NCBI RefSeq assembly: GCF_033095865.1
Contig: NZ_AP019365.1
Coordinates: 1,461,501-1,525,500, forward strand
Source of the DNA: Pseudomonas sp. KU43P
GTDB taxonomy: Bacteria > Pseudomonadota > Gammaproteobacteria > Pseudomonadales > Pseudomonadaceae
Length of the DNA stretch: 64,000 bases
Direction of reading: 5' to 3'
This document shows positions 50,554-63,986 of the stretch, piece by piece; the first letter of the stretch is position 1; each line of letters starts with the position of its first letter. The notes below the pieces were generated by a model. It was not told where the DNA came from and made no database searches. It was given only the letters and a program-made list of their open reading frames with translations. Both the position numbers and the translations under genes were made by a program.

Positions 50554-51783
50554 TCAGAAGTAGTAACCGATGTTGATATTGGTCCGGTAATACCAGTCAT
50601 TGCTACCCACCGAGCTGGTGCTGGTCCACCCCGTACCATTCTCCGCTCCACCAAACGGGTTGGCATTTCGTGCCCAGGTCAGGTCGACCCAGGCCATGAT
50701 CGGCATGGCCAGAAACTGCGCGCCGACGGTGAACATCTGCGAGTCGTCCCAGCCATGCTTGTCCTTCATCATCCGGCTGTAGTCGGTGTACAGCTTGATC
50801 TTCTTCAACTGCCCCAGTTTCGGCGTGAACACGTCATAGCCGACGTTGAGCGCACCGATGGTCGCCTTCGAGGCAATCAGGTACGCCGGGGTCAGGCCAT
50901 TGCCGCCCATCAGCACCGCATCGTCGCTGACGCCGGCCGGGTTCTTCGGGTCGTACTCATAGCGGATCGCCTGCCCTGTCACGGTCCAGGGCCCCTGGTT
51001 GAACAGTGCGTGCACGCCGCCCGCCCAGTAGTCGCCGTCATCATGGGTGGTGGCGTTGTACAGCTCGGCGGCTGCCAGGGAAGCGCCGAGCTCGGTCTTC
51101 CAGCCATCGCCGCTGAAGGTACGGGCCACGCGGGCGTTGAGCTGGTTGCGCTTTTCGTTGTCCTGGCGCGATTGCGTGAAGGGCACGGCATTGTCGTCGA
51201 GGTCGGCATAGCGGCCGACCTCCGGCGAGTAGCGCAAGCTCGAGGGCAACATGCGCGGGAAGTAACCGAGCTGCAAATCCCATTGGGCATCCTTGTAGCT
51301 GTATTTCAGCCCGGTGCCGGCGCTGACGCCATAACCCATGAAGAACGGAATGTGGTAGCTCCAGCCGAACTGTGGGTAGGGCTCCAGGCCGAATGGCTTG
51401 AACGGCGCGCCGAATTGCAGGTTGGCTTGCGGGCTGAAGCGGTAGCCGATGTAGCCGCGGTCGATGGAACGCTTGCCATCGTCCTGGAACCAGTAGCCGA
51501 CATCGCTGAACAACTGGCGATGGCTGGCCTGCACGTCGAGTCGGAAGGTGTCGAAAAGGAAGCGGCCGTTGTTTTCGGTGGTGTCCCAGTGTTCGTCGCG
51601 GTAGTTGACGCGCAGCGCGCCCCCGATGTCTAGGCTGCTCTGGCCGTCGTCACTGCGCCAGGCAATGTGCGGGAAGGGCTTTTTCGCGGTGGGTGGCTGG
51701 TCCGGGGCCGCGGGGCCGGGTTCGGAGGCGAAGCTTGTGCAACTGCCGAGAATGAGACCGAGGCTTATCACATATCTGTTCAT
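50554..51783 (-). CDS. outer-membrane porin
   Basis: 409 residues with a signal peptide (MNRYVISLGLILGSCTSFAS) and alternating beta-strand pattern. It ends in phenylalanine (RTNINIGYYF), the outer-membrane sorting signal. DIGGALRVNYRDEHW starts the barrel and YIGYRFSPQANLQFGAPFKP, DWYYRTNINIGYYF are typical of the phosphate-selective/OprP-like or carbohydrate-porin superfamily. The substrate cannot be told. A sigma-54-type promoter lies about 100 bases upstream. Confidence 0.83.
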   Translation of the reverse strand: MNRYVISLGLILGSCTSFASEPGPAAPDQPPTAKKPFPHIAWRSDDGQSSLDIGGALRVNYRDEHWDTTENNGRFLFDTFRLDVQASHRQLFSDVGYWFQDDGKRSIDRGYIGYRFSPQANLQFGAPFKPFGLEPYPQFGWSYHIPFFMGYGVSAGTGLKYSYKDAQWDLQLGYFPRMLPSSLRYSPEVGRYADLDDNAVPFTQSRQDNEKRNQLNARVARTFSGDGWKTELGASLAAAELYNATTHDDGDYWAGGVHALFNQGPWTVTGQAIRYEYDPKNPAGVSDDAVLMGGNGLTPAYLIASKATIGALNVGYDVFTPKLGQLKKIKLYTDYSRMMKDKHGWDDSQMFTVGAQFLAMPIMAWVDLTWARNANPFGGAENGTGWTSTSSVGSNDWYYRTNINIGYYF

Positions 51784-51891: not shown

Positions 51892-51907
51892 AGCAGGTTC
51901 TGTGCCA
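51892..51907 (-). promoter_or_regulatory. sigma-54-type promoter of the porin gene
   Basis: On the minus strand the sequence is TGGCACAGAACCTGCT. It has GG and GC exactly 10 bases apart, as in the -24/-12 consensus TGGCAC-N5-TTGC. Start of transcription would be near 51881. A strongly A+T-rich stretch (51905-51975) lies upstream, suiting an IHF-bent enhancer contact. Confidence 0.55.
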
Positions 51908-52148: not shown

Positions 52149-52175
52149 AAAAAAAACCGACCCCAAGGGGCCGGT
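52149..52175 (-). terminator. intrinsic terminator of the aromatic operon
   Basis: On the minus strand ACCGGCCCC and GGGGTCGGT pair (nine pairs, one G-T) around a 2-base loop, followed by a run of eight T. It lies 30 bases after the stop of the reductase gene, in the direction of that operon. Confidence 0.9.
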
Positions 52176-52204
52176 CAAGGTTACGCGTGAGCAACGCATT
52201 CACA

Positions 52205-53164
52205 TCAAAGATCAAGCACCAACCGCCGGCTCTTGCACCCGGACACACACACCATCATCGATCGGTTCGCCGCTCGTTCGGCCTTGGTCAGCACGCCATC
52301 GCGGTGGTCCACGTCGCCGTCCAGCACCCGCGTCTCGCAAGAGCCGCACACTCCCTCGCGGCAGCTGTGCTCGATGTCACAGCCCGCTTCGAGCAGTACA
52401 TCCAGCAGGTTCAGCCCAGGCTCGACGGTCACGGTCTTGCCGGACTTGCTCAACTCGACGCTGTAGCTGGCTTGTGCATCTGCAGACGGCTCCACCTGCA
52501 CGGCGGTGAAGCGCTCGATATGCGCATGCGGGTAGCCCAGCCGTTCGCAGGCCTGCTCGAAGGCATCCAGCATCGGCGTCGGCCCGCAGCAGTAGAAGTG
52601 CGTATCGGCAGGGCGACCCTGCAGGTAGCCGGCCAGGTCCGGCAGGCCGCCCTTTTCGTCGTTGAAGTGAGAGATCACCTTGGCACCAAGCCCGCTGATC
52701 TCCTCCAGCAGCGCGGCTTCGGCGCGCGAGCGGGCGCAGTAGATCAACTCGGCCGAACGCCCCATGGCCAGCAACTGGCGGAACATGCAGTAGATCGGCG
52801 TGATGCCGATGCCGCCGGCCACCAGCACGCTGTGGCTGGCGCGGGTGTCGAGGGCGAAGTTGTTGCGCGGCGGGGAGATCTGCAACTGCGTACCCACCCG
52901 CAGTTGCTCGTGAACATAGCGCGAGCCCCCGCGGCTGGCGCGGTCACGCAGGATGCCGACCACATAGCGGCCCTGGTCGCTCGGCGCGTTCAGCAGCGAG
53001 TAGCTGCGCACCAGGCCGTTGGGCAGGTGCAGGTCGATGTGCGAGCCGGCCTCGAACGGCGCGAACACGGTATCGCCCCAAGGGCGCAGCTCGACGCTGA
53101 TGATGCCTTCGGCTTCATGGCGCAGGGTATGCACCAACGCGCTGATGGTGGAGGAGTTGGACAT
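52205..53164 (-). CDS. PDR/VanB-family oxygenase reductase (FMN, NAD, 2Fe-2S)
   Basis: 319 residues in the phthalate dioxygenase reductase order. The FMN domain has RSYSLLNAPSDQGRYVVGIL, the NAD domain has VLVAGGIGITPIYCMF and FYCCGPTPMLDAFEQACERL. The C-terminal plant-type ferredoxin carries CDIEHSCREGVCGSCETRVL with the last cysteine in MMVCVSGC. It passes electrons from NADH to the Rieske oxygenase encoded just upstream. It is the last gene of the operon, before the terminator. Confidence 0.95.
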   Translation of the reverse strand: MSNSSTISALVHTLRHEAEGIISVELRPWGDTVFAPFEAGSHIDLHLPNGLVRSYSLLNAPSDQGRYVVGILRDRASRGGSRYVHEQLRVGTQLQISPPRNNFALDTRASHSVLVAGGIGITPIYCMFRQLLAMGRSAELIYCARSRAEAALLEEISGLGAKVISHFNDEKGGLPDLAGYLQGRPADTHFYCCGPTPMLDAFEQACERLGYPHAHIERFTAVQVEPSADAQASYSVELSKSGKTVTVEPGLNLLDVLLEAGCDIEHSCREGVCGSCETRVLDGDVDHRDGVLTKAERAANRSMMVCVSGCKSRRLVLDL

Positions 53165-53178
53165 CGGTCACCTCAAGT

Positions 53179-54213
53179 TCAGGCCAGTTGCCGGGTTTCG
53201 ATCAGGGCCAGTTGTTCCTTGGCCTTGCTTTTGAGGTAACGGCGCAGGCGCACCACGCCCAGGTCGTGCTGGTACAGGTTTTCGCGCTGGTTGGCGTCGA
53301 ACTCCATGAATTCCAGCAGCACCCGGTCCTGCTCCAGCACCGCCCAGTGGCGCGCCTCCAGGCGGTTCTTGTAAAGGAAGCGCCAGGTGTCGCGCTGCCA
53401 GCCGGTCAACGGCCGTGCGCGCCAGTGGAAAACCGCCGACAGCGCGCGGCTGCTCGGGGTGTAGCTGCCGATGATGGTGAAGTTGCCGCCTGGGCCACCG
53501 GTCTTCGGGTAGGGGATTTCCAAACGCAGCCAGTGGCAGCCGTTATCGAGGAATTCGGTCCAGTCGAAGTTGACCCCGCGCTGGCCTTCCTTCTCGAAGA
53601 AGAAGCCTTGTTCGGTGTCGCGGGTGACGAACTTGGCGGTGGCTTCGCCCTCGCTCATGGAGTGCGACATCTTGTGCAGGTAGGTGCCGTGCATCGGGTC
53701 CATGACGTTGTCGAGCACGTAGCGGTAATCACCTTTCCACTCGGTGTAGCAGAGGAAGCTGCTCCACTCGGGCGAGGTCAGCTGCTCGGGCAGCACCAGC
53801 TCGGGCGGTGTGTCCAGGTGCGGGTCGGTGGCGTTGAACAGGAAGATCGCGCCGGCGGCCTCGCGGGTATGGAACATTCGCGTCGGGCGGCTGCCTTCGA
53901 GCTTGCAGCCCGGGCTGCCCGGCACCTTGGTAACGGTGCCGTCGCAGCGCACTTCGACGCCGTGGTAAGGGCATTGCAGGCGGTCGCCCAGCACCGGCCC
54001 CTGGGACAGCGGGGCACCACGGTGCGGGCAGTGGTCTTCGAGGGCGTGGACGCTGCCATCGTTGTCGCGCCACAGGGCGATCTTGTAGCCCAGGCGGCGA
54101 ATCGAGACGGGTTTTTCGCTCAGCAGCTCCGACGGCAAGACCGGGAACCAGAGGTCTTTCAGGCCATTGGCCAGGTGTTGTTCAACAGGGTCGACGGTGA
54201 TGTGCATGTTCAT
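53179..54213 (-). CDS. Rieske-type ring-hydroxylating oxygenase (single alpha component)
   Basis: 344 residues. The Rieske cluster is bound by C62-H64 (HCPHRGAPLSQG) and C81-H84 (CPYHG). The mononuclear iron site is DNVMDPMHGTYLHKMSH near residue 170 (D-x2-H-x4-H). No beta-subunit gene is present, so it is of the alpha-only, VanA/phthalate-oxygenase type that often performs O- or N-demethylation or hydroxylation. It lies 15 bases upstream of its reductase. The substrate is unknown. Confidence 0.93.
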   Translation of the reverse strand: MNMHITVDPVEQHLANGLKDLWFPVLPSELLSEKPVSIRRLGYKIALWRDNDGSVHALEDHCPHRGAPLSQGPVLGDRLQCPYHGVEVRCDGTVTKVPGSPGCKLEGSRPTRMFHTREAAGAIFLFNATDPHLDTPPELVLPEQLTSPEWSSFLCYTEWKGDYRYVLDNVMDPMHGTYLHKMSHSMSEGEATAKFVTRDTEQGFFFEKEGQRGVNFDWTEFLDNGCHWLRLEIPYPKTGGPGGNFTIIGSYTPSSRALSAVFHWRARPLTGWQRDTWRFLYKNRLEARHWAVLEQDRVLLEFMEFDANQRENLYQHDLGVVRLRRYLKSKAKEQLALIETRQLA

Positions 54214-54233
54214 CTTGTTTTACCTCCGGAGGG

Positions 54234-54461
54234 TCATTCGCCCAGCCGTGCCATCAGGGTTTCAAAGGCTTCTTCGGTCCATTCTCCGCGGGTGAGCGGG
54301 CAGGGTGGGCCGGCCAGGTTGAGGTGGGCGAGCAATTCGCCAAGCTCGCTCACGCCATTGCCGTAGGCGCGTTCGATCGAGTCGCCGAGCAGGTCCTCGA
54401 ACGGCGTGCTGGGGCGTTTGCGTGCCTGGTGGGGCTGCAGGTAAACCTCGGTTGTGCTCAT
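54234..54461 (-). CDS. 75-residue helical protein of the oxygenase operon
   Basis: Short acidic protein: MSTTEVYLQPHQARKRPSTP, then FEDLLGDSIERAYGNGVSEL and WTEEAFETLMARLGE. Predicted all-helical, with a possible HTH-like C-terminal half. Similar small genes occur beside Rieske oxygenases and are annotated as recombinase-like helix proteins; no recombinase catalytic residues exist. ATG 54461 has GAGGT before it. It sits between the VOC protein and the oxygenase, and is probably a partner or assembly factor of the oxygenase. That role is inference. Confidence 0.65.
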   Translation of the reverse strand: MSTTEVYLQPHQARKRPSTPFEDLLGDSIERAYGNGVSELGELLAHLNLAGPPCPLTRGEWTEEAFETLMARLGE

Positions 54462-54471
54462 GGGATCGACC

Positions 54472-55440
54472 TCAATCTTGTTTGGGCTTGTCAGTGAGGA
54501 ATTTGCCTTGCGGCGCTTCGGCGTGCTGCTGGCGCCGGGTGTTGCCATCGATGCCGCCGGCGATCGCCCATTCGGCGAACACCGTCGGGCCGGGTTCGAA
54601 CTCGCGCGGCTGCCATTCGCCGGTCAGTTGGTCTTCGTCGGCGTAGTACTCGACCAGCGCGCCGGCGGGGTTCTTGAAGTACCAGAAGAACGCCGACGAC
54701 ACCGGGTGACGGCCAGGGCCGATCTCGGTGGCCCAGCCGCAGCGTGAGATGTGCATGCCGCCGCCGAACACCTCGTGCAGATCGCGCACGGTGAACGCCA
54801 CGTGGTTGAGGCCGGCGCGCGGGGCTGGCAGTTGCAGCATGAACAGGTCGTGGTGGCCACCCTCCTCGGCGGTGCGCAGGAAGGCGCCGCGGTTGGGGTA
54901 GCGGTCCGAGGCCTGGAAGCCGAAACGTTCGTGGTAGAACGCTTCGCAGGCATTGACGTCTTTCACGAAGAACACCACATGGCCCACTTCGATGGGCGTG
55001 GCGCGTTCGTAGACGGGGGCTGGCTTGTTGATGCGGCCCTTGGTCTGCCAGGTGTTGTGGCCGCTGCACTCAAGGTCCAGGGCGCGCTTGCGGGTGACCT
55101 GCAGGCGGATCGCCAGGCCGTTGGGGTCGGTGCAGCCGATGCGGCCGTTGCCTTCGACGAAACCAGGGTCGTTGGCGATGCGCTGGCTGTACAGTGCAAG
55201 GTCGGCCTGGCTTTCGACGCCCCACACCACTTCGCGCACGGTCGAGCCGGGCTCGATCGCTGGCGGCAGGCCGGGTTTGTCGATGGCCGCCAGCACCACA
55301 CGGCAGCCGTTGAGGGTTTCGAAGATCACTTCGTCTGGCTGCTCGCTGACCTTGTTCAGGCCCCAGTCGGCGAAGAAGCGCGCGCAGGTGGCGAGGTCTT
55401 CTACGCCGTAGGTGACTTCATCGATGCCCAGTACGCTCAT
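54472..55440 (-). CDS. VOC-superfamily protein, extradiol-dioxygenase-like
   Basis: 322 residues in two glyoxalase modules. The second has the metal ligands H in EVGHVVFFVKDV, H in GLNHVAFTVRDLHEV, and E in ALVEYYADEDQ, matching type I extradiol dioxygenases and their relatives. The first module lacks an obvious ligand set. It would cleave a catecholic intermediate or isomerise a product. The start ATG 55440 overlaps the stop of the aldehyde dehydrogenase (ATGA). Confidence 0.83.
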   Translation of the reverse strand: MSVLGIDEVTYGVEDLATCARFFADWGLNKVSEQPDEVIFETLNGCRVVLAAIDKPGLPPAIEPGSTVREVVWGVESQADLALYSQRIANDPGFVEGNGRIGCTDPNGLAIRLQVTRKRALDLECSGHNTWQTKGRINKPAPVYERATPIEVGHVVFFVKDVNACEAFYHERFGFQASDRYPNRGAFLRTAEEGGHHDLFMLQLPAPRAGLNHVAFTVRDLHEVFGGGMHISRCGWATEIGPGRHPVSSAFFWYFKNPAGALVEYYADEDQLTGEWQPREFEPGPTVFAEWAIAGGIDGNTRRQQHAEAPQGKFLTDKPKQD

Positions 55441-56915
55441 TGCCCTGCCTCCACGCCGGCCCAGGCCAGCGGTTGTTGGTTCATGCCCCAGTAGAGGCTC
55501 TTCTGTTCCATGTACTGCAGGATGCCCAGGCGGCCTTTTTCGCGGCCCAGGCCGCTGTCACGCCAGCCGCCGAACGGCGTCGAGATGGAAAACTGCTTGT
55601 AGGTGTTGATCCATACCGTGCCGGCTTGCAGCCTGCGGCCCAGGGCCCAGGCGCGTTTGTAGTCGCGGCTCCAGATGCCGGCGGCGAGGGCGTAGAGGCT
55701 GTCGTTGGCCTGGGCCAGCAGTTCTTCTTCGCTGTCGAACGGCATTGCCACCAGTACCGGGCCGAAGATTTCTTCCTGGCACACCTGCTGGTGGTTGGCC
55801 AGGCCTTCGAGGATGGTGGGCGGATAGAAATAGCCCGCGCCACTCGGGCGCTCGCCGCCCAGACGCAGGCGGCCACCTTCGGCCAGGCCCAGGGCCACGT
55901 AGCGCTCCACCGATTCGCGGTGGGCGGCGCTGATCAGCGGGCCCATCTGCGTGCGCTCGTCGGCCGGGTCGCCCAGGCGCAGTTGCGCGGCGGCGGCTGT
56001 CAGGCGCGCCATGAACGGCTCGTACAGGGCGCGCGCGACGAACAACCGGGAGCCGGCGATGCAGGCCTCGCCGGAGGAGCTGAAGATGCCGTAGAGCACG
56101 CCGGCGACCGCGTGATCGAGGTCGGCGTCGTCGAGGACGATGGTCGGCGACTTGCCGCCCAGCTCCAGCGACACCGGCATCATCTTGTCGGCGGCAATAT
56201 GGGCGATGTGCTTGCCGGTGCGGGTGCCACCGGTGAACGACACGCGCTTGACCAGCGGGTGGCGGGTCAGGGCATCACCGAGCAGCGAGCCCTTGCCCGG
56301 CAGCACGCTGACCAGGCCCTTGGGCAACCCGGCTTCTTCGCAGATGCGCGCCAGTTGCAGGGCCAGCAAAGGCGTGATTTCCGCCGGCTTGATCACCACC
56401 GCATTGCCGCCGGCCAGGGCCGGGGCAACCTTCTGCGCTTCGCTGGCGATCGGCGAGTTCCACGGGGTGATGGCCGCGACCACGCCCATCGGCTCGTACA
56501 CGCTCATGCTGACGAAATCGCCGCGCGACGGGGTGATGGTTTCTTCCAGCGTCTCGCAGGCAGCGGCGAAGAACTGGAAGGTGCCGGCCGCGCTGGCGAC
56601 CAGGGCACGGGTTTCGTTGATCGGTTTGCCGTTGTCCTGGCGCTGCAGTTGCGCCAGTTCCTCGGCGCGTTCGCGGATCAGTCCGGCAATGCGATACAGC
56701 ACGGCGGCGCGTTCGTGCGGTTTGCGCTGGGCCCAGCCGCTGTGCAGGAAGGCCTGGTGCGCGCCCTGCACGGCGGCCTCGACATCGTCCAGGCTGGCGG
56801 CGTTTAGCCAGGCCACTGGCTCGCCGGAGGCCGGGTAGCAGGTGGCGTAGCGTTCGCCGCCGCCCAGGCGCCAGGTGCCGGCGATGCAGATGGGTAAGGT
56901 CTGTTCCAGAGTCAT
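55437..56915 (-). CDS. aldehyde dehydrogenase of the aromatic cluster
   Basis: 492 residues. WNSPIASEAQKVAPALAGGN binds the cofactor, VSLELGGKSPTIVLDDADLD carries the general base, and FSSSGEACIAGSRLFVARAL the catalytic cysteine. FKQFSISTPFGGWRDSGLGR-like C-terminal sequence is normal for NAD-dependent members acting on aromatic or semialdehyde substrates. ATG 56915 is used; an upstream in-frame start overlaps the preceding gene. It is 11 bases after the aspartate-dehydrogenase-like gene. Confidence 0.9.
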   Translation of the reverse strand: MTLEQTLPICIAGTWRLGGGERYATCYPASGEPVAWLNAASLDDVEAAVQGAHQAFLHSGWAQRKPHERAAVLYRIAGLIRERAEELAQLQRQDNGKPINETRALVASAAGTFQFFAAACETLEETITPSRGDFVSMSVYEPMGVVAAITPWNSPIASEAQKVAPALAGGNAVVIKPAEITPLLALQLARICEEAGLPKGLVSVLPGKGSLLGDALTRHPLVKRVSFTGGTRTGKHIAHIAADKMMPVSLELGGKSPTIVLDDADLDHAVAGVLYGIFSSSGEACIAGSRLFVARALYEPFMARLTAAAAQLRLGDPADERTQMGPLISAAHRESVERYVALGLAEGGRLRLGGERPSGAGYFYPPTILEGLANHQQVCQEEIFGPVLVAMPFDSEEELLAQANDSLYALAAGIWSRDYKRAWALGRRLQAGTVWINTYKQFSISTPFGGWRDSGLGREKGRLGILQYMEQKSLYWGMNQQPLAWAGVEAGQ

Positions 56916-56925
56916 TGGCAGTCCC

Positions 56926-57729
56926 CTAGATGGAAATGGCATGGGCGTGGTTGCCGAGGGCGCGCACCACGCTGTAGACAGTCAGTGCCGAAGTCTTCGG
57001 GTTGGCCGCCAGCGGCTTGCCGCGCAGGCTCATCTCGAAGCGGCCGAAGGCGCCGCGGGCTTCGACCTGGTGCACGTTCTCCTCGCTCAGCGGGTCGGCG
57101 ATCAGGGTCACGCGGGTGCGGTCCAGGCCCAACCCCGCCAGCGACAGCGTGGCGGCGACGTTGGCGTTCTTCGGGTACAGCCGCGCTGCCTCGCGGGCGC
57201 TGCCGTCGAAGATCACCATCGCCTCGCCCAGCGTGTCCAGGTTGCAGACCTGCTCGGCTGGGGTGTTCTTCCAGGCCCGCGCCGGCTTGCGGCCGATGTA
57301 GGTGACCGCATCCAGGCCGCCGACCTTGGCCGCCGACAGCGCATCGATGCCGCCAATGGCGCCAGGCAGCAACTCGATGCGCGTGTTGCCACGTGCCGCA
57401 GCCGCCTCCAGGCGCTCGACCAGGCCCGGCTCGGAGAGCGCGCCCACCGAGACGATCAGGCACGCGATACCGCGTTCCAGCGCCGGCAGCACGTGCTCTT
57501 CGATGGCCATGTGGCCGGCGCACTCGACCAGCAGGTCGGGGTGTGCATCGGCGGGCAGGGCGGTGAGTACCCTTGGCGGCTGGCGGAAGCTGGCCAGGCG
57601 CTGGCGCACCAGGTCTTCGGAGCCGGCCGAGGCGATCACCGCATCGACGCACAGTTGCGGGTCGTTCTCCAGCAGTTCGAGCACGCTGACGCCAATGGCG
57701 CCGCAGCCGATCATGGTGATATGCAACAT
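56926..57729 (-). CDS. aspartate-dehydrogenase-like oxidoreductase
   Basis: 267 residues. MIGCGAIGVSVLELLENDPQ is the NAD-binding motif; LVECAGHMAIEEHVLPALER, LLPGAIGGIDALSAAKVGG and ANVAATLSLAGLGLDRTRVT match the L-aspartate dehydrogenase/NadX fold. In NAD synthesis it would form iminoaspartate, but no nad genes are near, so in this cluster it may act on an amino or imino acid produced by the pathway. The reaction is open. Confidence 0.8.
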   Translation of the reverse strand: MLHITMIGCGAIGVSVLELLENDPQLCVDAVIASAGSEDLVRQRLASFRQPPRVLTALPADAHPDLLVECAGHMAIEEHVLPALERGIACLIVSVGALSEPGLVERLEAAAARGNTRIELLPGAIGGIDALSAAKVGGLDAVTYIGRKPARAWKNTPAEQVCNLDTLGEAMVIFDGSAREAARLYPKNANVAATLSLAGLGLDRTRVTLIADPLSEENVHQVEARGAFGRFEMSLRGKPLAANPKTSALTVYSVVRALGNHAHAISI

Positions 57730-57739
57730 GGCGATGTCC

Positions 57740-59422
57740 TCAGGCCGTGGCCTTCTGCGCCTTGGTTTCGCTGTTGGGCGGGCCGGCGAACTGGGTGGCG
57801 AAGCCGCCGACGCTGAGCATGTCGACTTCCAGCAGGAACGGGCCTTGCTCGCCCAGGGCGCCTTCGAGCACGTTGCCGAAATTGTTGAGGTCGCTGACCA
57901 GGCCATGGCGCAGGCCGAGCGACTCGGCGAGCTTGGCGTAGTCCGGGGTGTGCAGTTCGACATAGGCATGACGGGCGCCGTAGATGGCGTCCTGGATGTT
58001 GCGGATCACACCGTAGCGCTGGTCGTTCATCAGCAGGATGACCACGTTGGCGTTCTCCTGCACCAGGGTCGCCAGCTCACCCAGGTTGAGGATGAAGCCA
58101 CCGTCGCCGGCCAGGGCGAACACCTTGCGCCCGGGGGCGGTTTCCGCCGCTGCCACCGCTGCGCCGATGCCCATTGCCAGGCCTTGGCCGATACCGCCAC
58201 CGAGGGCGTGCACGCCCGACAGCGGGTGGTACAGGTTGAGCAGGCGGTTGCCCCAGATGCTGTTGGACAAGGTCACGTCGCGCACCCAGGTGAAGTTGCG
58301 CCCGGTCTGCGCCTGCAACTGCTCGACCAGCGCTGAGTACGGGCCCAGGTCGGCAACCAGTTGCTTGCGTGCCTGTTCACGCACGGCCTTGAGCTCAGGC
58401 AGGAAGTTCGGGTCGATATTCAGGCGGCCCTGCAGGCGGTCGGCCAGGCCTTCCAGGGCCAGCGCGGCATCGCCGCAGATGAACAGGTCGCTGGGGTAGC
58501 TGCGGCCTTCGATGGCCGGGTTGACGTCGATGCGCAAGGTGGTGCGCGGCAGCTTCAGGGCGTACTTGAATGTCTCGTTGCTGCGCAGGCGCGAGCCGGC
58601 CACCACCAGGGCATCGCAGGTCTGCATGAAGCCTTCGACCAGCTTGTTCTGCGAGAAGGCGCCCAGGCAGCGGGCGTCGTCTTCGTTGACCACGCCGCGG
58701 CCCTGGGTCGAGGTGATCACGCCGACGCCCATGTCGAGCAGACGCTTGACCTGCGCGCCGGCATGCCGGGCGCCACCGCCCAGCCACAGCAGCGGGCGGG
58801 TGGCGCTGGCCAGGCGCTCGGCGACCAGGTCGAGTGCTTCGGCGGCCGGCGCGGCGACCGGAATCGGCAGCGGCGACAGGTCGGTCGGCATGGGGATGAA
58901 GGCCGACTGGATATCGATCGGGATCTCCACGCTGACCGGGCCGGTGGGGGCGGTCAGGGCGGTCTGCACGGCGAGCTTCAGGGTGCTCAGCGCGGTCTCC
59001 ACGCTGCGCACGCGGAAGGCCGCCTTGGACACTGCCTTGAGCATGGTCAGCTGGTCGCGTGCTTCGTGGATGTAGGCCAGCTCCTGGTCCAGATAGGGGG
59101 TTTCGATCTGCCCGGTGAGGTGCAGCAGCGGGGTGCCGGCGGTCAGTGCCTCGACCATGGCCCCGGCAGCATTGCCGGCTGCAGTGCCGGTGGAGGTCAG
59201 GCAAACGCCCAGGCCACCGCTGCTGCGGGCATAGGCGTCGGCCATGTTGGTCGCCCCGGCTTCGCCGCGGGCCATGACGAAGCGGATGTTGCCGCGCACG
59301 GCGAAGGCATCGAGGATCGGCATGTTGTGGATCGAGATCACCCCGAACGCCGCCTTGACGTCGCATTGCTCGAGGAACGCGGTGATGACGGCACCGACGG
59401 TGACAGTGTTTTCGTTACGCAT
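57740..59422 (-). CDS. thiamine-diphosphate-dependent enzyme (acetolactate synthase/benzoylformate decarboxylase family)
   Basis: 560 residues. VMARGEAGATNMADAYARSS contains the cofactor-activating glutamate, and GDGGFILNLGELATLVQENA with LMNDQRYGVIRN forms the GDG-x-NDQ thiamine diphosphate and metal site. VSVEIPIDIQSAF separates the domains. It probably decarboxylates or carboligates a 2-oxoacid intermediate. Its ATG at 59422 overlaps the end of the SDR gene by 8 bases. Exact activity cannot be read. Confidence 0.87.
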   Translation of the reverse strand: MRNENTVTVGAVITAFLEQCDVKAAFGVISIHNMPILDAFAVRGNIRFVMARGEAGATNMADAYARSSGGLGVCLTSTGTAAGNAAGAMVEALTAGTPLLHLTGQIETPYLDQELAYIHEARDQLTMLKAVSKAAFRVRSVETALSTLKLAVQTALTAPTGPVSVEIPIDIQSAFIPMPTDLSPLPIPVAAPAAEALDLVAERLASATRPLLWLGGGARHAGAQVKRLLDMGVGVITSTQGRGVVNEDDARCLGAFSQNKLVEGFMQTCDALVVAGSRLRSNETFKYALKLPRTTLRIDVNPAIEGRSYPSDLFICGDAALALEGLADRLQGRLNIDPNFLPELKAVREQARKQLVADLGPYSALVEQLQAQTGRNFTWVRDVTLSNSIWGNRLLNLYHPLSGVHALGGGIGQGLAMGIGAAVAAAETAPGRKVFALAGDGGFILNLGELATLVQENANVVILLMNDQRYGVIRNIQDAIYGARHAYVELHTPDYAKLAESLGLRHGLVSDLNNFGNVLEGALGEQGPFLLEVDMLSVGGFATQFAGPPNSETKAQKATA

Positions 59423-60212
59423 GGCGGGACAGGCCTCCGGATACATCGATATGACTGCCAGTGGTGTAGGCCGACAGGGGCGAAGCCAGGAACAGGATCG
59501 CCTGCGCCGCTTCCTTCGGCAGGCCAAGGCGGCCCAAGGGGATTTGTTTGCGTTGCGCCAGTTGCGCGGTCCATTGCGACCAGTCCAGCTCGCGCGCTTC
59601 GCGGGCTTCGAAGCGGCGCCGCCATTGCCCGGATTCGACCAGGCCGATGAGGATGCCGTTGACCCGGATGCCGTGTTCGGCGAATTCGAAGGCCATCGAG
59701 CGCACCAGGTTCTTCAGCCCGGCGCGAGCGGCCGAGGTGGCGACCATGTGGGGCTCGGGCTGGCTGGCCAGCAGCGAGTTGACGCAGACGATCGAGGCGT
59801 TCGCTTGCCCCTGCAGTTGCGCCATGAAGGCGCGTACCGGGTGGATGACCGAGAAGAACTTGAGCTGCAGTTCATCGCTCCAGGCCTGGTCGGTGGTGTC
59901 GGCGAAGGTCGACACACGGCCTTGGCCGGCGTTGTTGACCAGCACCTGGGCCGGGCCGAGCGCTTCCAGGCTGGCGGCGGCGAAGGCCTGCACGGAGGAG
60001 GCGTCGAGCACGTCGCAGACCTGGGCCAGCAGGCGTGCCTCGGGGAAGTGTTCGCGCAGCCGCGCTTCGGCGCTGCGCAGGCGTTCTTCGTTGCGCCCGC
60101 AGAAGGCCACCCGGGCACCGGCTTCGAGCAGCAGTTCGACGCAGGCGTAGCCGATACCGGACGAACCGCCGGTGACGATCACGGTGCTGTCTTGCAGTTG
60201 GTAAGGGTTCAT
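59415..60212 (-). CDS. SDR-family oxidoreductase with altered active-site residues
   Basis: 265 residues. TVIVTGGSSGIGYACVELLL is the NAD(P)-binding motif and VLVNNAGQGRVSTFAD the NNAG motif. The catalytic serine is in CVNSLLASQPEP. Where most SDRs have YxxxK, this protein reads ATSAARAGLKNL, so the tyrosine is threonine and the lysine arginine. It may be inactive as a dehydrogenase or belong to a divergent subgroup. It starts 2 bases from the IclR stop. Confidence 0.85.
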   Translation of the reverse strand: MNPYQLQDSTVIVTGGSSGIGYACVELLLEAGARVAFCGRNEERLRSAEARLREHFPEARLLAQVCDVLDASSVQAFAAASLEALGPAQVLVNNAGQGRVSTFADTTDQAWSDELQLKFFSVIHPVRAFMAQLQGQANASIVCVNSLLASQPEPHMVATSAARAGLKNLVRSMAFEFAEHGIRVNGILIGLVESGQWRRRFEAREARELDWSQWTAQLAQRKQIPLGRLGLPKEAAQAILFLASPLSAYTTGSHIDVSGGLSRHA

Positions 60213-60213
60213 G

Positions 60214-61041
60214 TTAGTCCCTCATCAACGCAGTGACGCGGCCGTGGCCTGCGTTGGGCGTGTAGTTGAGCAGCCGCGACAGCTCATCGGCGCTGGTGCG
60301 GACCTGCCCCAGCAGGTTGTCGAAATTGACATGGCCGATCTGCACGGTCGGGATGGTCAGGCCGAGCGCCGCGACCACCTGGCCGCTGGCATCGCGCACG
60401 GGGGCTGCGACCGTGGAGATGGTCGACTCGAAGAAGCCTTCGCCGCTGACATAGCCGCGCAGGCGATCGGCCTGGACCAGGTCGAACAGCTCCAGCACGG
60501 TCTTCGGCGTGCACGGCGAAAACTGTTCCAGATGTTCCTCGGGGTAGAGCTCGCGCAATTCGCCCAGGCTCAGGTCAGCCAGCAGGATGCGCCCCAGTAC
60601 CGTGGCGTGGGCCGGCAGGCGGGTGCCGACGGTGACGGCGCTGGAGAACACCGAGGGTGGCGAGACCTTGGCCACGTAGACGATCGAGCGGCCGTCGCGC
60701 ACCACCAGGTTGCTGGGGTAGTTGAGGTGATCGCACAGTCGGGCCAGCAACGGTTGGCCAAGCTCGGTCAGTTCCAGCGAGGCCAGGTATTCGAAACCCA
60801 GGCGCAGTACCGACATGCCCAGGCGGTACTCGTTGCCGCTGCGGGTGACGAAGCCCATGGTTTCCAGGGTGGTCAGCAGGCGGAAGATGGTCGAGCGTGG
60901 CAGCGACAGGCGCCGCGCCAGTTCGGGGGCGGTCAGGGTGCGGTTCTGCCGGCTGAATTCGCACAGCAGCAGCAGGCCGCGTTCCAGGCCGGGGACAATG
61001 TACTTGTCCTGGTTTTCCTTCAACGGATCCATATCGTTCAT
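60214..61041 (-). CDS. IclR-family transcriptional regulator
   Basis: 275 residues. Winged helix: LTAPELARRLSLPRSTIFRL; effector domain from about residue 90 with RLPAHATVLGRILLADLSLG and GEGFFESTISTVAAPVRDAS, GQVVAALGLTIPTVQIGHVN. The gene lies inside the operon, overlapping the alpha/beta hydrolase stop by 4 bases. It probably controls the cluster by feedback. Confidence 0.9.
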   Translation of the reverse strand: MNDMDPLKENQDKYIVPGLERGLLLLCEFSRQNRTLTAPELARRLSLPRSTIFRLLTTLETMGFVTRSGNEYRLGMSVLRLGFEYLASLELTELGQPLLARLCDHLNYPSNLVVRDGRSIVYVAKVSPPSVFSSAVTVGTRLPAHATVLGRILLADLSLGELRELYPEEHLEQFSPCTPKTVLELFDLVQADRLRGYVSGEGFFESTISTVAAPVRDASGQVVAALGLTIPTVQIGHVNFDNLLGQVRTSADELSRLLNYTPNAGHGRVTALMRD

Positions 61042-61886
61042 AGCACGCTACCTGTTTCAGAGGCGTCCAGGGCGCGGGCCAGCAGGCCCGTTACCGTGTC
61101 AGGTTGTTCGATGGCGCAGGCATGGCCGGCGCCGGGTATCAGCTTGAAAGGTGCCCCGAGTGCGGCGGCCAGGGCCTGGCAGTCGTCTGGGCGAGTGATA
61201 GCGTCGGCACTGCCGCAGTGCACCTCGCAAGGCACCGCTTGCGGTGCATGGCGCAACAGGTCGTCACCGCACAGCAGCTCGATGGCCTGGCGGTAGCCGT
61301 GTGGCAGCAGCCGCGCCATGTTCCACTGCACCCAGGCCAGCGCTTGGCTGCTGGCGCTGGCGGACAGCAGATGGGCACTGCGTTCGCGAGCCATCTGCGC
61401 GATGCCCATCTGCGCCAGGCTGTGCAGGCGCTTGCTGCGCACCGCCTGGCCTTGTTCGGGTTGCGCGCCATAGCCACGCGCCGGGCTGAGCAGTACCAGG
61501 CGGCTGACGCGATGCGGGTGGGCCTGGGCGAACGCGGCGGCGGTCAGCGCGCCGAGCGAATGCCCAACCAGCACGCAGCGCTCGATCGCCAGGGCGTCGA
61601 GCATGTGCAGCAGGCGCTCTGCGTAATCGCAAGCGTCTGGCGCAGCCACCGGCAATGGCGTGGACCGGCCGTACCCTGGGGCGTCCCAGGCGATCACCCG
61701 CGCCCGCTCGCTCAGGCCCAAAGCCACCTGCAACCAGCTGGCCGCGCCCGAGCCGATGCCGTGCAGCAGCACGATGGCGGCGCCGCTACCGGCTTCGCGC
61801 ACGGCTTGCTGGCCTTGGCCCAGGCGCAGCAGGCGCTCGCCAAAGCGCTGGTCGAGCTGGCCGTGCAGCGGGGTGATCGGCTGCAT
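61038..61886 (-). CDS. alpha/beta hydrolase
   Basis: 282 residues. IVLLHGIGSGAASWLQVALG is the oxyanion-hole region, VLVGHSLGALTAAAFAQAHP the nucleophile elbow with serine, and LIPGAGHACAIEQPDTV the catalytic histidine. Size and motifs fit meta-cleavage-product or ester hydrolases. The ATG at 61886 is 4 bases from the cupin stop. In the pathway it could hydrolyse a ring-cleavage product. Confidence 0.88.
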   Translation of the reverse strand: MQPITPLHGQLDQRFGERLLRLGQGQQAVREAGSGAAIVLLHGIGSGAASWLQVALGLSERARVIAWDAPGYGRSTPLPVAAPDACDYAERLLHMLDALAIERCVLVGHSLGALTAAAFAQAHPHRVSRLVLLSPARGYGAQPEQGQAVRSKRLHSLAQMGIAQMARERSAHLLSASASSQALAWVQWNMARLLPHGYRQAIELLCGDDLLRHAPQAVPCEVHCGSADAITRPDDCQALAAALGAPFKLIPGAGHACAIEQPDTVTGLLARALDASETGSVL

Positions 61887-61890
61887 CGGC

Positions 61891-62430
61891 TTACCCGCGC
61901 TTGATCGAGGCCAGCGGGTGCGCTGGCGGGTAGGTCGGGGTCACCGGCTTCTTGGCGCCGAGCATCACGCACATCAGCGCGTCTTCATCGCCGATGTTGA
62001 TCTCTTCGCGGTACACCCCCGGCGGCACCGAGATCAGGTCACGGTCGGTAAGGACGGTCTCGAAGCGCTCGCCATCCTTCTCGATGATCACCTTGAGCTT
62101 GCCGCGCAACACGAAGAACACTTCCTCGACGTCGGTGTGCAGGTGGGGCGGGCCCTCGTGGCCGGCCGGGATGACCATGGTGGAGAAGGTGAAGTGCTCG
62201 GACGGGATGGTGTTCATGTCGCTGCCCACGCCCGTGCCGCCGGTGCCCACGTAACGCATCTGCGCGCGGCGGAACTTGGGGTCGTAGTCGGCCTGGAACT
62301 TCAGCGCGTCCCAGTCGTAGCGGCGGGTTTCATAGCGGGCGATGCGGGTCTGCATCCAGCTGGCGAGGTCGGCGTCGGCCGGGCGGTCCCAGGATTTCGG
62401 GGCTTCGTTTTGCACAGAGAGGTCGGTCAT
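61891..62430 (-). CDS. cupin-domain protein
   Basis: 179 residues. One cupin motif is clear: PPHLHTDVEEVFFVLRGKLK (HxH with following E), then LISVPPGVYREEINIGDEDA for the second motif, where the usual histidine is tyrosine. A metal site with three ligands is likely. It may be a dioxygenase or an isomerase; a sensor role is also possible. AGGAG precedes ATG 62430. Confidence 0.82.
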   Translation of the reverse strand: MTDLSVQNEAPKSWDRPADADLASWMQTRIARYETRRYDWDALKFQADYDPKFRRAQMRYVGTGGTGVGSDMNTIPSEHFTFSTMVIPAGHEGPPHLHTDVEEVFFVLRGKLKVIIEKDGERFETVLTDRDLISVPPGVYREEINIGDEDALMCVMLGAKKPVTPTYPPAHPLASIKRG

Positions 62431-62445
62431 GAAGGTCTCCTTTGC

Positions 62446-63213
62446 TCAGGGCATGACGAACCCGCCGTTGACCGGCAGGGTTTGTCCAGTGATGAAGCGC
62501 GACAGGTCGGACAGGGCGAACAGCACCGCCCCACTGACGTCATCGGGCAGTTGCGGGCGCTGGATGGCCCGTTGTTCGGTGTACAGGCGGTGGCGGGCCT
62601 CGGGCACGTAGGCGGTGGCCTCGACCAGTACCAGGCCGGGGGCGATGGCGTTGACGGTGATGTTGGCATTGCCCAGCTCGCGGGCCAGGCTGCGGGTCAT
62701 GGCGATCACCGCGCCTTTGCTGGCGACATAGGCCAGCAGGTTGGGCGCGCCCCACAACGGGGTGTCGGAGGCCAGGTTGATCACCGCGCCACGGCCGCTC
62801 TCACGCAGTGCCGGCAGGGCGGCGCGGGTCATCAGCCAGGTGCCGCGCACGTTGACCTGCATGACCTGGTCCCAGGTTTCGATATCCAGCTCTTCGCAGC
62901 TCTTGCCGCCGGAGTTGGTGATCGAGGCGTTGTTGACCAGCCCGTCGAGGCCGCCCAGGCGCTTGACCGTGCGTTCGATGCAGGCCTCGATGGATTCGGG
63001 GCTGGCCAGGTCCAGGCTGACGCCGCTGACATCCAGGCCCATGCCGCTCAGCTCGCAGGCGGCCTGTTGCACGCGGCCGGCCAGCACATCGGCGATCACC
63101 ACCCGGGCACCGGCCTGGGCGATGGCCTGGGCGAAGGCATAGCCCAGGCCGCGGGCGCCACCGGTGACCAGCACGCGGCGGCCTTCGAGAAGGTTGTTGA
63201 AGCTGCTCATCAT
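62446..63213 (-). CDS. SDR-family oxidoreductase
   Basis: 255 residues. RVLVTGGARGLGYAFAQAIA binds NAD(P); GLVNNASITNSGG is the NNA motif; the active site is INLASDTPLWGAPNLLAYVA with YVASKG, the canonical Tyr-x3-Lys. C-terminal FITGQTLPVNGGFVMP is normal. It probably oxidises a dihydrodiol or alcohol. The ATG-ATG start (63213/63210) overlaps the permease stop. Confidence 0.9.
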   Translation of the reverse strand: MMSSFNNLLEGRRVLVTGGARGLGYAFAQAIAQAGARVVIADVLAGRVQQAACELSGMGLDVSGVSLDLASPESIEACIERTVKRLGGLDGLVNNASITNSGGKSCEELDIETWDQVMQVNVRGTWLMTRAALPALRESGRGAVINLASDTPLWGAPNLLAYVASKGAVIAMTRSLARELGNANITVNAIAPGLVLVEATAYVPEARHRLYTEQRAIQRPQLPDDVSGAVLFALSDLSRFITGQTLPVNGGFVMP

Positions 63214-63986
63214 TGGCTACTCAGCATGGCTTTGGGGAGGTAGTGCAGGACGCGCTTCTCGGCCCAGACCACGGCGCCATAGGCGAGCACGCCGATCAGG
63301 GTGAGCATGACGATGGCGACGAACACCCCGGCGGTGTTGCCCTGGCCTTCGGCATCCACCAGCAGGAACCCCAAGCCCTGGTTGCCACCGACCAGCTCGC
63401 CGACGGTCACCCCGATCACCGCCAGGGTCGAGGCGATGCGCAGGCCGGAGAACAGCGCGGCCATGGCCGAGGGGAACTCCACCAGGCGGAAGATCTGCCA
63501 GCGGCTGGCGTTCATGGTGCGCACCAGGTTGATCATGTCCGGGTCGACGGTGCGTATGGCCGAGAGCACGTTGATCATCACCGGGAAGAACACGATGAGG
63601 ATGGCGATGAGGATCTTGGGGTAGATGGTGTAGCCGAGCCACATCACGAACAGCGGTGCGAAAGCCACCTTGGGCGCGATCTGCAGGGCCAGGATGTAGG
63701 GCGAGAGCATGGCTTCGGCGGAGGGCGAGAGGCCCAGCGACACACCGATGGCCACGCCCAGCAGGGCACCGAGGGCGAAGCCGACGATGATCTCGAAGGC
63801 GGTGATCAGGGTGTGTTCGAACAGGCCACCGGACTGCCACATGACCAGGCTTTCCTGGGCAACGCGGCTCAGTTGCGGCATGACGAACTCGGGCATGCCG
63901 ACCAGCCCCGGGCCCCATTGCCAGAGCACCAGGAACAGGACCAGCAGGGCGACGCTGCCGGCCACGGACGGGTTGAGGTTTCTCAT
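63210..63986 (-). CDS. ABC transporter permease (nitrate/sulfonate/taurine type)
   Basis: 258 residues with six membrane helices. FEIIVGFALGALLGVAIGVS and APLFVMWLGYTIYPKILIAI, then LRIASTLAVIGVTVGELVGG are the SsuC/TauC permease motifs, with the EAA loop at TMNASRWQIFRLVEFPSAMA. AAGGTAAT lies before ATG 63986. The ATPase and binding-protein genes must lie beyond the right edge. The import substrate is probably the aromatic compound. Confidence 0.9.
   Translation of the reverse strand: MRNLNPSVAGSVALLVLFLVLWQWGPGLVGMPEFVMPQLSRVAQESLVMWQSGGLFEHTLITAFEIIVGFALGALLGVAIGVSLGLSPSAEAMLSPYILALQIAPKVAFAPLFVMWLGYTIYPKILIAILIVFFPVMINVLSAIRTVDPDMINLVRTMNASRWQIFRLVEFPSAMAALFSGLRIASTLAVIGVTVGELVGGNQGLGFLLVDAEGQGNTAGVFVAIVMLTLIGVLAYGAVVWAEKRVLHYLPKAMLSSQ

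What the first reader, a model, noticed from the sequence alone, without database searches (positions are those of the whole stretch)
52149..63986. Thirteen-gene aromatic catabolic operon with no substrate I can assign
Thirteen minus-strand genes with overlaps or gaps of at most about 30 bases end in a strong terminator. They encode an ABC permease, two SDRs, a cupin, an alpha/beta hydrolase, IclR, a ThDP enzyme, an aspartate-dehydrogenase-like protein, an aldehyde dehydrogenase, a VOC extradiol-like protein, a 75-residue protein and a Rieske oxygenase with its reductase. Family knowledge supports a route of import, oxygenation, ring cleavage, hydrolysis, decarboxylation and aldehyde oxidation. 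The ThDP enzyme plus aspartate-dehydrogenase-like pair is not part of any aromatic pathway I know. No REPIN interrupts these 12 kb.
Basis: partly seen in the sequence, partly recalled or inferred. Interest (0 to 1): 0.7.

Follow-up and report, generated by a model that had tools for sequence, protein, structure and literature searches.

The report
Probable kynurenate-degradation operon in Pseudomonas
A 15-gene bacterial operon, conserved across many Pseudomonas species and found in more distant bacteria, looks like a gene set for breaking down kynurenic acid, a compound made from tryptophan, although no experiment has tested this yet.

Summary
In detail: thirteen same-strand genes (63986-52205), -23 to +20 bases apart, ending at a terminator. 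Past the right edge lie the binding protein and ATPase, so the operon has 15 genes; a putative porin follows. Fifty-five of 61 named loci keep all 16 genes in order; the catabolic core recurs in Burkholderia relatives, Acinetobacter, Klebsiella, alphaproteobacteria and a Streptomyces plasmid.

Best explanation: the kynurenate ("quinoline") pathway. Rieske oxygenase, reductase and SDR1 make 7,8-dihydroxykynurenate; VOC cleaves the benzene ring; ThDP enzyme and ALDH shorten the keto-acid side chain; cupin, hydrolase and AspDH open the pyridine ring, giving glutarate and iminosuccinate, the AspDH substrate. Carbon balances (10 = 1+5+4). Support: kynA and kynB adjoin the cluster in one unnamed genus; cupin-hydrolase-IclR-AspDH stand apart in three genomes. 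Against: one genus only, weak co-occurrence with kynA, no kynA in this genome, no experiment. The kynurenate chemistry is recalled. Confidence 0.55. Ten searches of the held open-access library found no gene assignment.

The parts
63210..63986 (-). ABC transporter permease; binding protein and ATPase follow upstream outside the window
   Evidence: PF00528 E 1.1e-29; on L007 the SBP is PF09084 NMT1 and the ATPase PF00005
62446..63213 (-). SDR1: proposed cis-dihydrodiol dehydrogenase
   Evidence: PF13561/PF00106; no match in the Vibrio cluster that also lacks the Rieske gene; next to the Rieske gene in the records
61891..62430 (-). cupin: proposed lower-pathway (pyridine-ring) enzyme
   Evidence: PF07883 E 1e-12; H96, H98, E102, E103 invariant in 24 sequences; grouped with hydrolase and AspDH apart from the rest in three genomes
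61038..61886 (-). alpha/beta hydrolase: proposed lactam or C-C hydrolase
   Evidence: PF00561; S110, D228, H255 invariant in 25 sequences
60214..61041 (-). IclR regulator, nearest NCBIfam subfamily PcaR/PcaU/PobR (below cut-off)
   Evidence: PF01614/PF09339; TIGR02431 174.6 bits, cut-off 284.75
59415..60212 (-). SDR2: proposed side-chain reductase
   Evidence: NF005468 449 bits, cut-off 266; role is inference
57740..59437 (-). ThDP enzyme: proposed 2-oxo-acid decarboxylase
   Evidence: NF005470 871 bits, cut-off 495; E59, G444-D445-G446, N471 invariant in 28 sequences
56926..57732 (-). L-aspartate dehydrogenase family protein: proposed iminosuccinate reductase
   Evidence: NF009827 461 bits, cut-off 226; aligned with solved AspDH 2dc1; His221 invariant in 28 sequences
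55437..56942 (-). aldehyde dehydrogenase
   Evidence: PF00171 E 3.5e-166; E260, C294 invariant in 28 sequences
54472..55440 (-). two-domain VOC type I extradiol dioxygenase: proposed 7,8-dihydroxykynurenate 8,8a-dioxygenase
   Evidence: PF00903; alignment to homoprotocatechuate 2,3-dioxygenase; H154, H213, E264, H197, H245, Y254 invariant in 26 sequences
54234..54461 (-). 75-residue PF20552 protein, gene directly before the Rieske gene: possible oxygenase accessory subunit
   Evidence: PF20552 E 7.2e-26; AlphaFold model of three helices, mean pLDDT 75.4, no PDB match at E<=0.001
53179..54213 (-). Rieske oxygenase alpha subunit (DdmC/VanA-like)
   Evidence: PF00355, PF19112; DdmC best PDB match; C62, H64, C81, H84, D172, H175, H180, D296 invariant in 27 sequences
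52205..53164 (-). PDR/VanB-type reductase with C-terminal 2Fe-2S domain
   Evidence: PF00111, PF00175
52155..52176 (-). intrinsic terminator of the operon
51892..51907 (-). sigma-54-type promoter of the porin gene
   Evidence: 10 of 11 consensus positions; 9 or more in 50 of 55 loci, 4.7% in shuffles
50554..51783 (-). putative outer-membrane porin, syntenic with the operon
   Evidence: in order with the other 15 genes in 55 of 61 loci; no Pfam match, so the name is inference

Best explanation
The operon imports and mineralises kynurenate (4-oxo-quinoline-2-carboxylate). Proposed order: Rieske oxygenase + reductase make the 7,8-cis-dihydrodiol; SDR1 oxidises it to 7,8-dihydroxykynurenate; the VOC extradiol enzyme cleaves C8-C8a, giving a 4,6-dihydroxypicolinate with a 3-carboxy-3-oxopropenyl side chain; SDR2 reduces the side chain; the ThDP enzyme decarboxylates the 2-oxo acid; ALDH oxidises the aldehyde to a carboxyethyl group; cupin and alpha/beta hydrolase open the pyridone ring and split C4-C4a, releasing glutarate and aminofumarate/iminosuccinate; AspDH reduces iminosuccinate to L-aspartate, keeping the nitrogen and using NADH made upstream. 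Carbon balance: 10 = CO2 + 5 + 4. Shown here: gene families, conserved active sites, conserved gene order, kynA/kynB adjacency in one genus, and cupin-hydrolase-AspDH standing apart in three genomes. Recalled: the older kynurenate intermediates and EC numbers. Inferred: every gene-to-step assignment and the lower-ring chemistry.
For: (1) An extradiol enzyme followed by a ThDP decarboxylase and ALDH rather than a hydratase/aldolase is what the kynurenate route needs (recalled). (2) C2, C3, C4, N1 and the 2-carboxylate of kynurenate are the iminosuccinate skeleton, which explains an AspDH in an aromatic operon (inference). That kynA/kynB neighbours would be looked for was noted, before the stretches were fetched. 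(4) In G249, G839 and G699 cupin-hydrolase-IclR-AspDH form a second gene group beside the rest. (5) The Vibrio nigripulchritudo cluster shows no Rieske and no SDR1 match while keeping cupin, hydrolase, VOC, SDR2, ThDP, AspDH and ALDH, as expected of a dioxygenase/dihydrodiol-dehydrogenase pair. (6) A RidA-family (imine/enamine deaminase) gene lies by the Rieske gene in L117, L163, L164, L169 and L170. (7) Genomes with the cluster have kynA somewhat more often: 5 of 12 against 21 of 137 in the genus (p 0.037) and 24 of 29 against 173 of 270 in family f30 (p 0.031), one-sided, not corrected for relatedness; 4 of 4 cluster genomes of family f39 have it. (8) The first gene and the porin have sigma-54-type promoters, compatible with nitrogen control but not specific.
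Against: No biochemical or growth data. kynA adjacency is one genus, so one event: 2 of the 30 unnamed cluster loci read, 0 of the 61 named loci and none of the plasmid loci (only fetched flanks). The own genome has no PF03301 match at 1e-10, so kynurenate would have to come from outside. 0 of 2 family-f33 genomes with the Rieske gene have kynA. Kynurenine aminotransferase was never searched for. Co-occurrence is weak and both groups are related by descent. The Rieske enzyme's best solved relatives are DdmC and ketosteroid hydroxylases, monooxygenases, not classical dioxygenases. Three A. baumannii genes that by name and number match its cluster rise together with sulfur-starvation genes (PMC12892962, passages read; sequences not compared). 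A TauE/SafE sulfite exporter gene lies near one Caballeronia NK8 cluster. Novosphingobium places AspDH between ThDP and ALDH, against a clean upper/lower split. ALDH, SDR2 or reductase is not found in some clusters, and L161 has Rieske, PF20552 and cupin without the other core genes in 20 kb.
Confidence: 0.55

Rival explanations
1. The operon degrades a different N-heteroaromatic acid (for example xanthurenate, quinaldate or another quinoline or pyridine carboxylate) by the same logic; kynurenate is at most a side substrate.
For: The gene logic only demands a fused or substituted N-ring. A FAD monooxygenase (nearest NCBIfam models 3-hydroxybenzoate and salicylate hydroxylase, below cut-off) is an optional member: between VOC and the PF20552 gene in 27 of 58 loci, elsewhere in 4, not in the locus in 27. 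Its relatives of 60% identity or more in plasmids, 6 of 169 matched records, all lie in records that hold the cluster (against 39 and 40), and the Vibrio cluster has it but no Rieske match. That fits a second entry such as xanthurenate, which already carries the 8-hydroxyl (inference).
Against: This genome gave no match to the FAD monooxygenase at 1e-20. kynA/kynB adjacency points to the kynurenine branch. Quinaldate without the 4-oxygen would not give iminosuccinate directly (inference).
Confidence: 0.2
2. The substrate is a benzenoid acid or an arylsulfonate taken up by the SsuA-like ABC transporter; AspDH merely supplies or removes ammonium.
For: The binding protein is nearest to the SsuA family (TIGR01728, 87.9 bits, cut-off 163.5). 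A. baumannii genes matching the cluster by name are co-listed with sulfur-acquisition genes. A TauE/SafE sulfite exporter lies near the cluster of Caballeronia NK8 pNK83.
Against: No desulfonating or sulfite-handling gene is among the recurrent core genes; the transporter is replaced by MFS or TRAP genes in other clusters; AspDH recurs in nearly all clusters read.
Confidence: 0.15
3. The enzymes demethylate or modify a plant O-methyl or N-methyl aromatic, with VOC and ThDP acting on a side chain rather than a ring.
For: Rieske subunit closest in PDB to dicamba O-demethylase.
Against: The match to DdmC is 76 bits and confined to residues 17-183; VOC keeps the full extradiol residue set; no C1 gene recurs in the clusters listed.
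Confidence: 0.07

Closest known systems
Kynurenate (quinoline) pathway of tryptophan degradation in Pseudomonas (EC 1.14.99.2, 1.3.1.18, 1.13.11.10; recalled; papers of 1961 and 1963 seen only in reference lists)
   Same: Same order of reaction types: ring dihydroxylation, dihydrodiol dehydrogenation, extradiol cleavage, oxo-acid decarboxylation, aldehyde oxidation (recalled).
   Different: Known as enzymology; no gene assignment in what I searched. The AspDH end step is my proposal.
kynBAU-antABC anthranilate branch
   Same: Also starts from tryptophan; kynA loci of five cluster-bearing Pseudomonas genomes (L181-L186) hold what read as kynB, kynU and anthranilate dioxygenase genes (by eye; not each locus shows all of them).
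   Different: Separate locus; goes through kynureninase and anthranilate dioxygenase.
VanAB / DdmC two-component Rieske oxygenases
   Same: Alpha subunit with VanA_C domain and PDR reductase.
   Different: Sits with SDR1, an extradiol enzyme and a PF20552 protein; several relatives have a ferredoxin plus HcaD-type reductase instead.
AruH-AruI-KauB arginine transaminase route (recalled)
   Same: Oxo-acid decarboxylation by a ThDP enzyme, then aldehyde oxidation.
   Different: No oxygenase or ring cleavage; aminotransferase instead of AspDH.

Membership tests
Rieske oxygenase alpha subunit | CxH...CxxH cluster site, bridging Asp, 2-His-1-Asp iron | tested here: met
   C62, H64, C81, H84, D172, H175, H180, D296 invariant in 27 sequences; positions up to H180 aligned with DdmC; D296 by invariance only
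Type I extradiol dioxygenase | 2-His-1-Glu iron site and second-sphere His/Tyr | tested here: met
   residue roles recalled from homoprotocatechuate 2,3-dioxygenase
L-aspartate dehydrogenase | NAD-binding domain plus Asp_DH_C, catalytic His | tested here: met
   PF03447, PF01958, NF009827 above cut-off, H221
L-aspartate dehydrogenase | activity on L-aspartate/iminosuccinate | not testable with these tools
   activity of relatives is recalled only
ThDP-dependent decarboxylase | cofactor Glu and GDG-Asn motif | tested here: met
   E59, G444-G446, N471 invariant in 28 sequences; fits the ThDP superfamily, not decarboxylation in particular
Kynurenate degradation pathway | a fitting enzyme family for each described step in one operon | tested here: inconclusive
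   families fit, but the step list is recalled and SDR2 as side-chain reductase is a guess
Kynurenate degradation pathway | genomic link to tryptophan-to-kynurenine genes | tested here: inconclusive
   adjacent in one genus; weak co-occurrence
Kynurenate degradation pathway | turnover of kynurenate | not testable with these tools
   needs growth and enzyme assays

The most novel reading that the evidence does not exclude
The operon is the missing gene set for complete kynurenate degradation, built as two modules: an exchangeable entry block (Rieske + SDR1 + PF20552 protein for kynurenate, or a FAD monooxygenase for xanthurenate) and a core that ends by converting the pyridone nitrogen and carbons directly to L-aspartate through iminosuccinate.
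Probability: 0.4. Interest if true: 0.75.

Novelty: new variant of a known kind. Interest (0 to 1): 0.6.

Why it matters
Kynurenate is an animal signalling metabolite, and its bacterial breakdown was described enzymologically around 1960 (recalled); I found no gene for it. If right, one deletion strain and one enzyme assay would assign several enzyme activities at once, explain a gene set present in many Pseudomonas and in soil and clinical bacteria, give AspDH a catabolic role, and let the ability to destroy kynurenate be read from genomes.

Tried and rejected
Rejected or corrected: (a) Co-loss of hydrolase and AspDH in three genomes, first read from 20-kb pieces, was wrong: both genes lie just beyond the pieces. 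(b) P0004 looked like a Rieske-RidA fusion; its sequence shows a truncated RidA part, so it is not counted. (c) The PF20552 protein gave a moderate model and no structural match, so its role stays open. (d) No palindrome shared by the upstream regions was firm enough to call an IclR site. (e) PAO1 locus tags PA3504-PA3511 were searched from recall and gave nothing on substrate; homology to PAO1 genes was not tested. (f) kynA co-occurrence was hoped to be strong and is weak. (g) The 1961 and 1963 papers and a 1996 quinoline review are not held. (h) Notebook entry 4 says that the kynA-neighbour expectation was written; one search lists only kyn genes and co-occurrence, and the neighbour check is. 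The report follows the latter.

Active-site alignments used 24-28 rows of 30 sequences offered per enzyme (17 of 30 for PF20552); loci without a match of over 85% cover and 33% identity were dropped. FAD-monooxygenase counts use the 58 of 61 loci that hold both flanking genes. Rieske counts in genomes are at E<=1e-100 and include the own genome. The empty answer had no positive control in its own call.
Full report
WHAT IS THERE. The 13 ORFs are real and tightly packed (gaps). The window is bases 1461501-1525500 of a 5.87-Mb single-contig genome. Taking the next bases shows a binding protein and an ATPase in the same direction, with gaps of 29 and 31 bases, so the operon has 15 genes and a complete ABC importer. 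It ends at a terminator at 52176-52155, and a putative porin follows at 51783-50554.

CONSERVATION. A scan of named genomes with the ThDP enzyme gave 61 loci; 54 of the 61 titles say Pseudomonas. In 55 all 16 genes stand in the same order, in 57 all 15 without the porin; the four others are L093, L095, L096 and L099, short, cut or variant. At E<=1e-100 the Rieske gene is in 12 of 149 genomes of the genus sample, 9 of 398 of the phylum sample and 29 of 299 of family f30; the first two counts include the own genome. Among plasmid records 26 hold the Rieske gene (E<=1e-40: Acinetobacter, Caballeronia, Burkholderia, Klebsiella, Cupriavidus, Novosphingobium, Streptomyces, Pseudosulfitobacter, Nitratireductor, Paracoccus) and 28 the ThDP gene (E<=1e-100).

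WHAT VARIES. The recurrent core is Rieske, SDR1, VOC, ThDP, ALDH, AspDH, hydrolase, cupin, IclR and usually SDR2 and the PF20552 protein. Exceptions: L096 and L166 show no ALDH match, some clusters no SDR2 or VanB-type reductase, and L161 only Rieske, PF20552 and cupin in 20 kb. The electron supply changes between a VanB-type reductase and a ferredoxin plus HcaD-type reductase, the transporter between ABC, MFS and TRAP. A Vibrio nigripulchritudo plasmid keeps cupin, hydrolase, VOC, SDR2, ThDP, AspDH and ALDH but shows no Rieske, SDR1 or PF20552 match; PF20552 is often missed by tblastn, so its absence is the weakest of the three. A FAD monooxygenase is an optional extra; its plasmid relatives of 60% identity or more, 6 of 169 matched records, all lie in records with the cluster. 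The own genome gave no match to it at 1e-20.

TWO GROUPS. In G249 and G839 (one genus) and G699 (another) the cluster is split. One group holds SDR1, IclR, SDR2, ThDP, ALDH, VOC, PF20552, Rieske and reductase (plus cupin in G699); 1.5-2.8 kb away a second holds cupin, hydrolase, another IclR and AspDH. I first misread this as loss and corrected it. Transcripts are not known and the gap was not annotated. It suggests that AspDH works with cupin and hydrolase, not with ThDP. Novosphingobium, with ThDP-AspDH-ALDH together, does not follow this.

ACTIVE SITES. Across 25-28 sequences the metal and catalytic residues of Rieske, VOC, ThDP, AspDH, hydrolase and ALDH are invariant, with VOC, Rieske, AspDH and ThDP placed by alignment to solved structures. 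The cupin (24 sequences) keeps His-x-His and Glu but not the usual last His (read from the sequence; motif recalled).

MECHANISM. An extradiol enzyme acting on a bicyclic catechol gives a 2-oxo acid side chain. A ThDP enzyme and an aldehyde dehydrogenase then remove CO2 and make an acid. This is the upper part of kynurenate degradation as I recall it. After it a 4,6-dihydroxypicolinate remains. Hydrolysis of its lactam and of the C4-C4a bond would yield glutarate and aminofumarate, the tautomer of iminosuccinate, which AspDH reduces to aspartate. The carbons add up: 1 + 5 + 4 = 10. Every enzyme then has a task, but the last three steps are my inference.

TEST OF THE IDEA. In one search I noted kyn genes and co-occurrence as things to check, and kynA/kynB neighbours, before fetching the stretches. 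Of 30 unnamed cluster loci read, G728 (L180) and G851 (L189) have kynA (PF03301) facing the reductase gene, 2 bases beyond it in L180 and a few in L189, then a kynB-like gene; neither stretch has a kynureninase match. They share a genus, so this is one event; a hand estimate, not computed, puts the chance of such a neighbour among some 30 loci at a few per cent. kynA is not in the fetched flanks of any of the 61 named loci nor of the plasmid loci. kynA presence is only mildly higher with the cluster (p 0.037 and 0.031; f39 4 of 4, f33 0 of 2). The own genome has none, so kynurenate would be taken up, which agrees with the importer and porin. Kynurenine aminotransferase was not searched.

REGULATION. 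Before the first gene a GG-N10-GC site scores 9 or more of 11 in 58 of 59 loci (3.2% in shuffles), the same 16 bases (TGGCATTGTTCATGCA) in 53; before the porin gene a more variable site does so in 50 of 55 (4.7%). RpoN control is therefore likely, besides the internal IclR.

LITERATURE. Ten searches listed no paper that assigns genes to kynurenate degradation. Passages read: PMC5610271 says that a degradation pathway was suggested in P. fluorescens, citing a 1963 paper. PMC5757984 lists A. baumannii hydrolase, AspDH, ALDH and ThDP genes as mucin-induced. PMC12892962 lists cupin, AspDH and ALDH genes with sulfur genes. PMC3758355 lists the AspDH gene among biofilm-only genes. The match of these locus tags to the cluster is by name and order only. 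No passage read tests a substrate. The library lacks most subscription papers, so an assignment elsewhere is possible.

VERDICT. A real, complete and widely conserved catabolic operon; kynurenate is the best single candidate at about 0.55.

Noticed in passing
L007:16200-16759 (window numbering 66200-66759, outside): A 28-bp unit repeated 20 times at 97% identity lies just upstream of the operon, between two opposed REP copies at L007:16178-16197 (-) and 16755-16774 (+).
   Followed up: partly
window, 30 places between 2369 and 52129: REP matches mostly come in opposed pairs; chance expectation 0.01. None falls in 52205-63986.
   Followed up: partly
L007:15959-15944 and window 51907-51892: Sigma-54-type promoters before the operon (nearly invariant across loci) and the porin gene (more variable); the activator protein is unknown.
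   Followed up: partly
L121:17235-18319: Vibrio nigripulchritudo plasmid cluster with no Rieske or SDR1 match but with the FAD monooxygenase, matched in two pieces.
   Followed up: no
L180:8063-9052: A gene that reads like a dihydrodipicolinate-synthase-family aldolase sits inside the cluster of G728; no locus of another genome held matched it. Family name read from the sequence, not searched.
   Followed up: no
L197: A 19.7-kb Burkholderia ambifaria plasmid carries a VOC relative (46%) with ALDH matches and a small FAD-dependent oxidoreductase gene but no other core match.
   Followed up: no
L076: Pseudomonas sp. T1-3-2 shows three binding-protein/permease pairs in its cluster, perhaps for several related substrates.
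   Followed up: no
L117, L163, L164, L169, L170: RidA-family gene next to the Rieske gene.
   Followed up: partly
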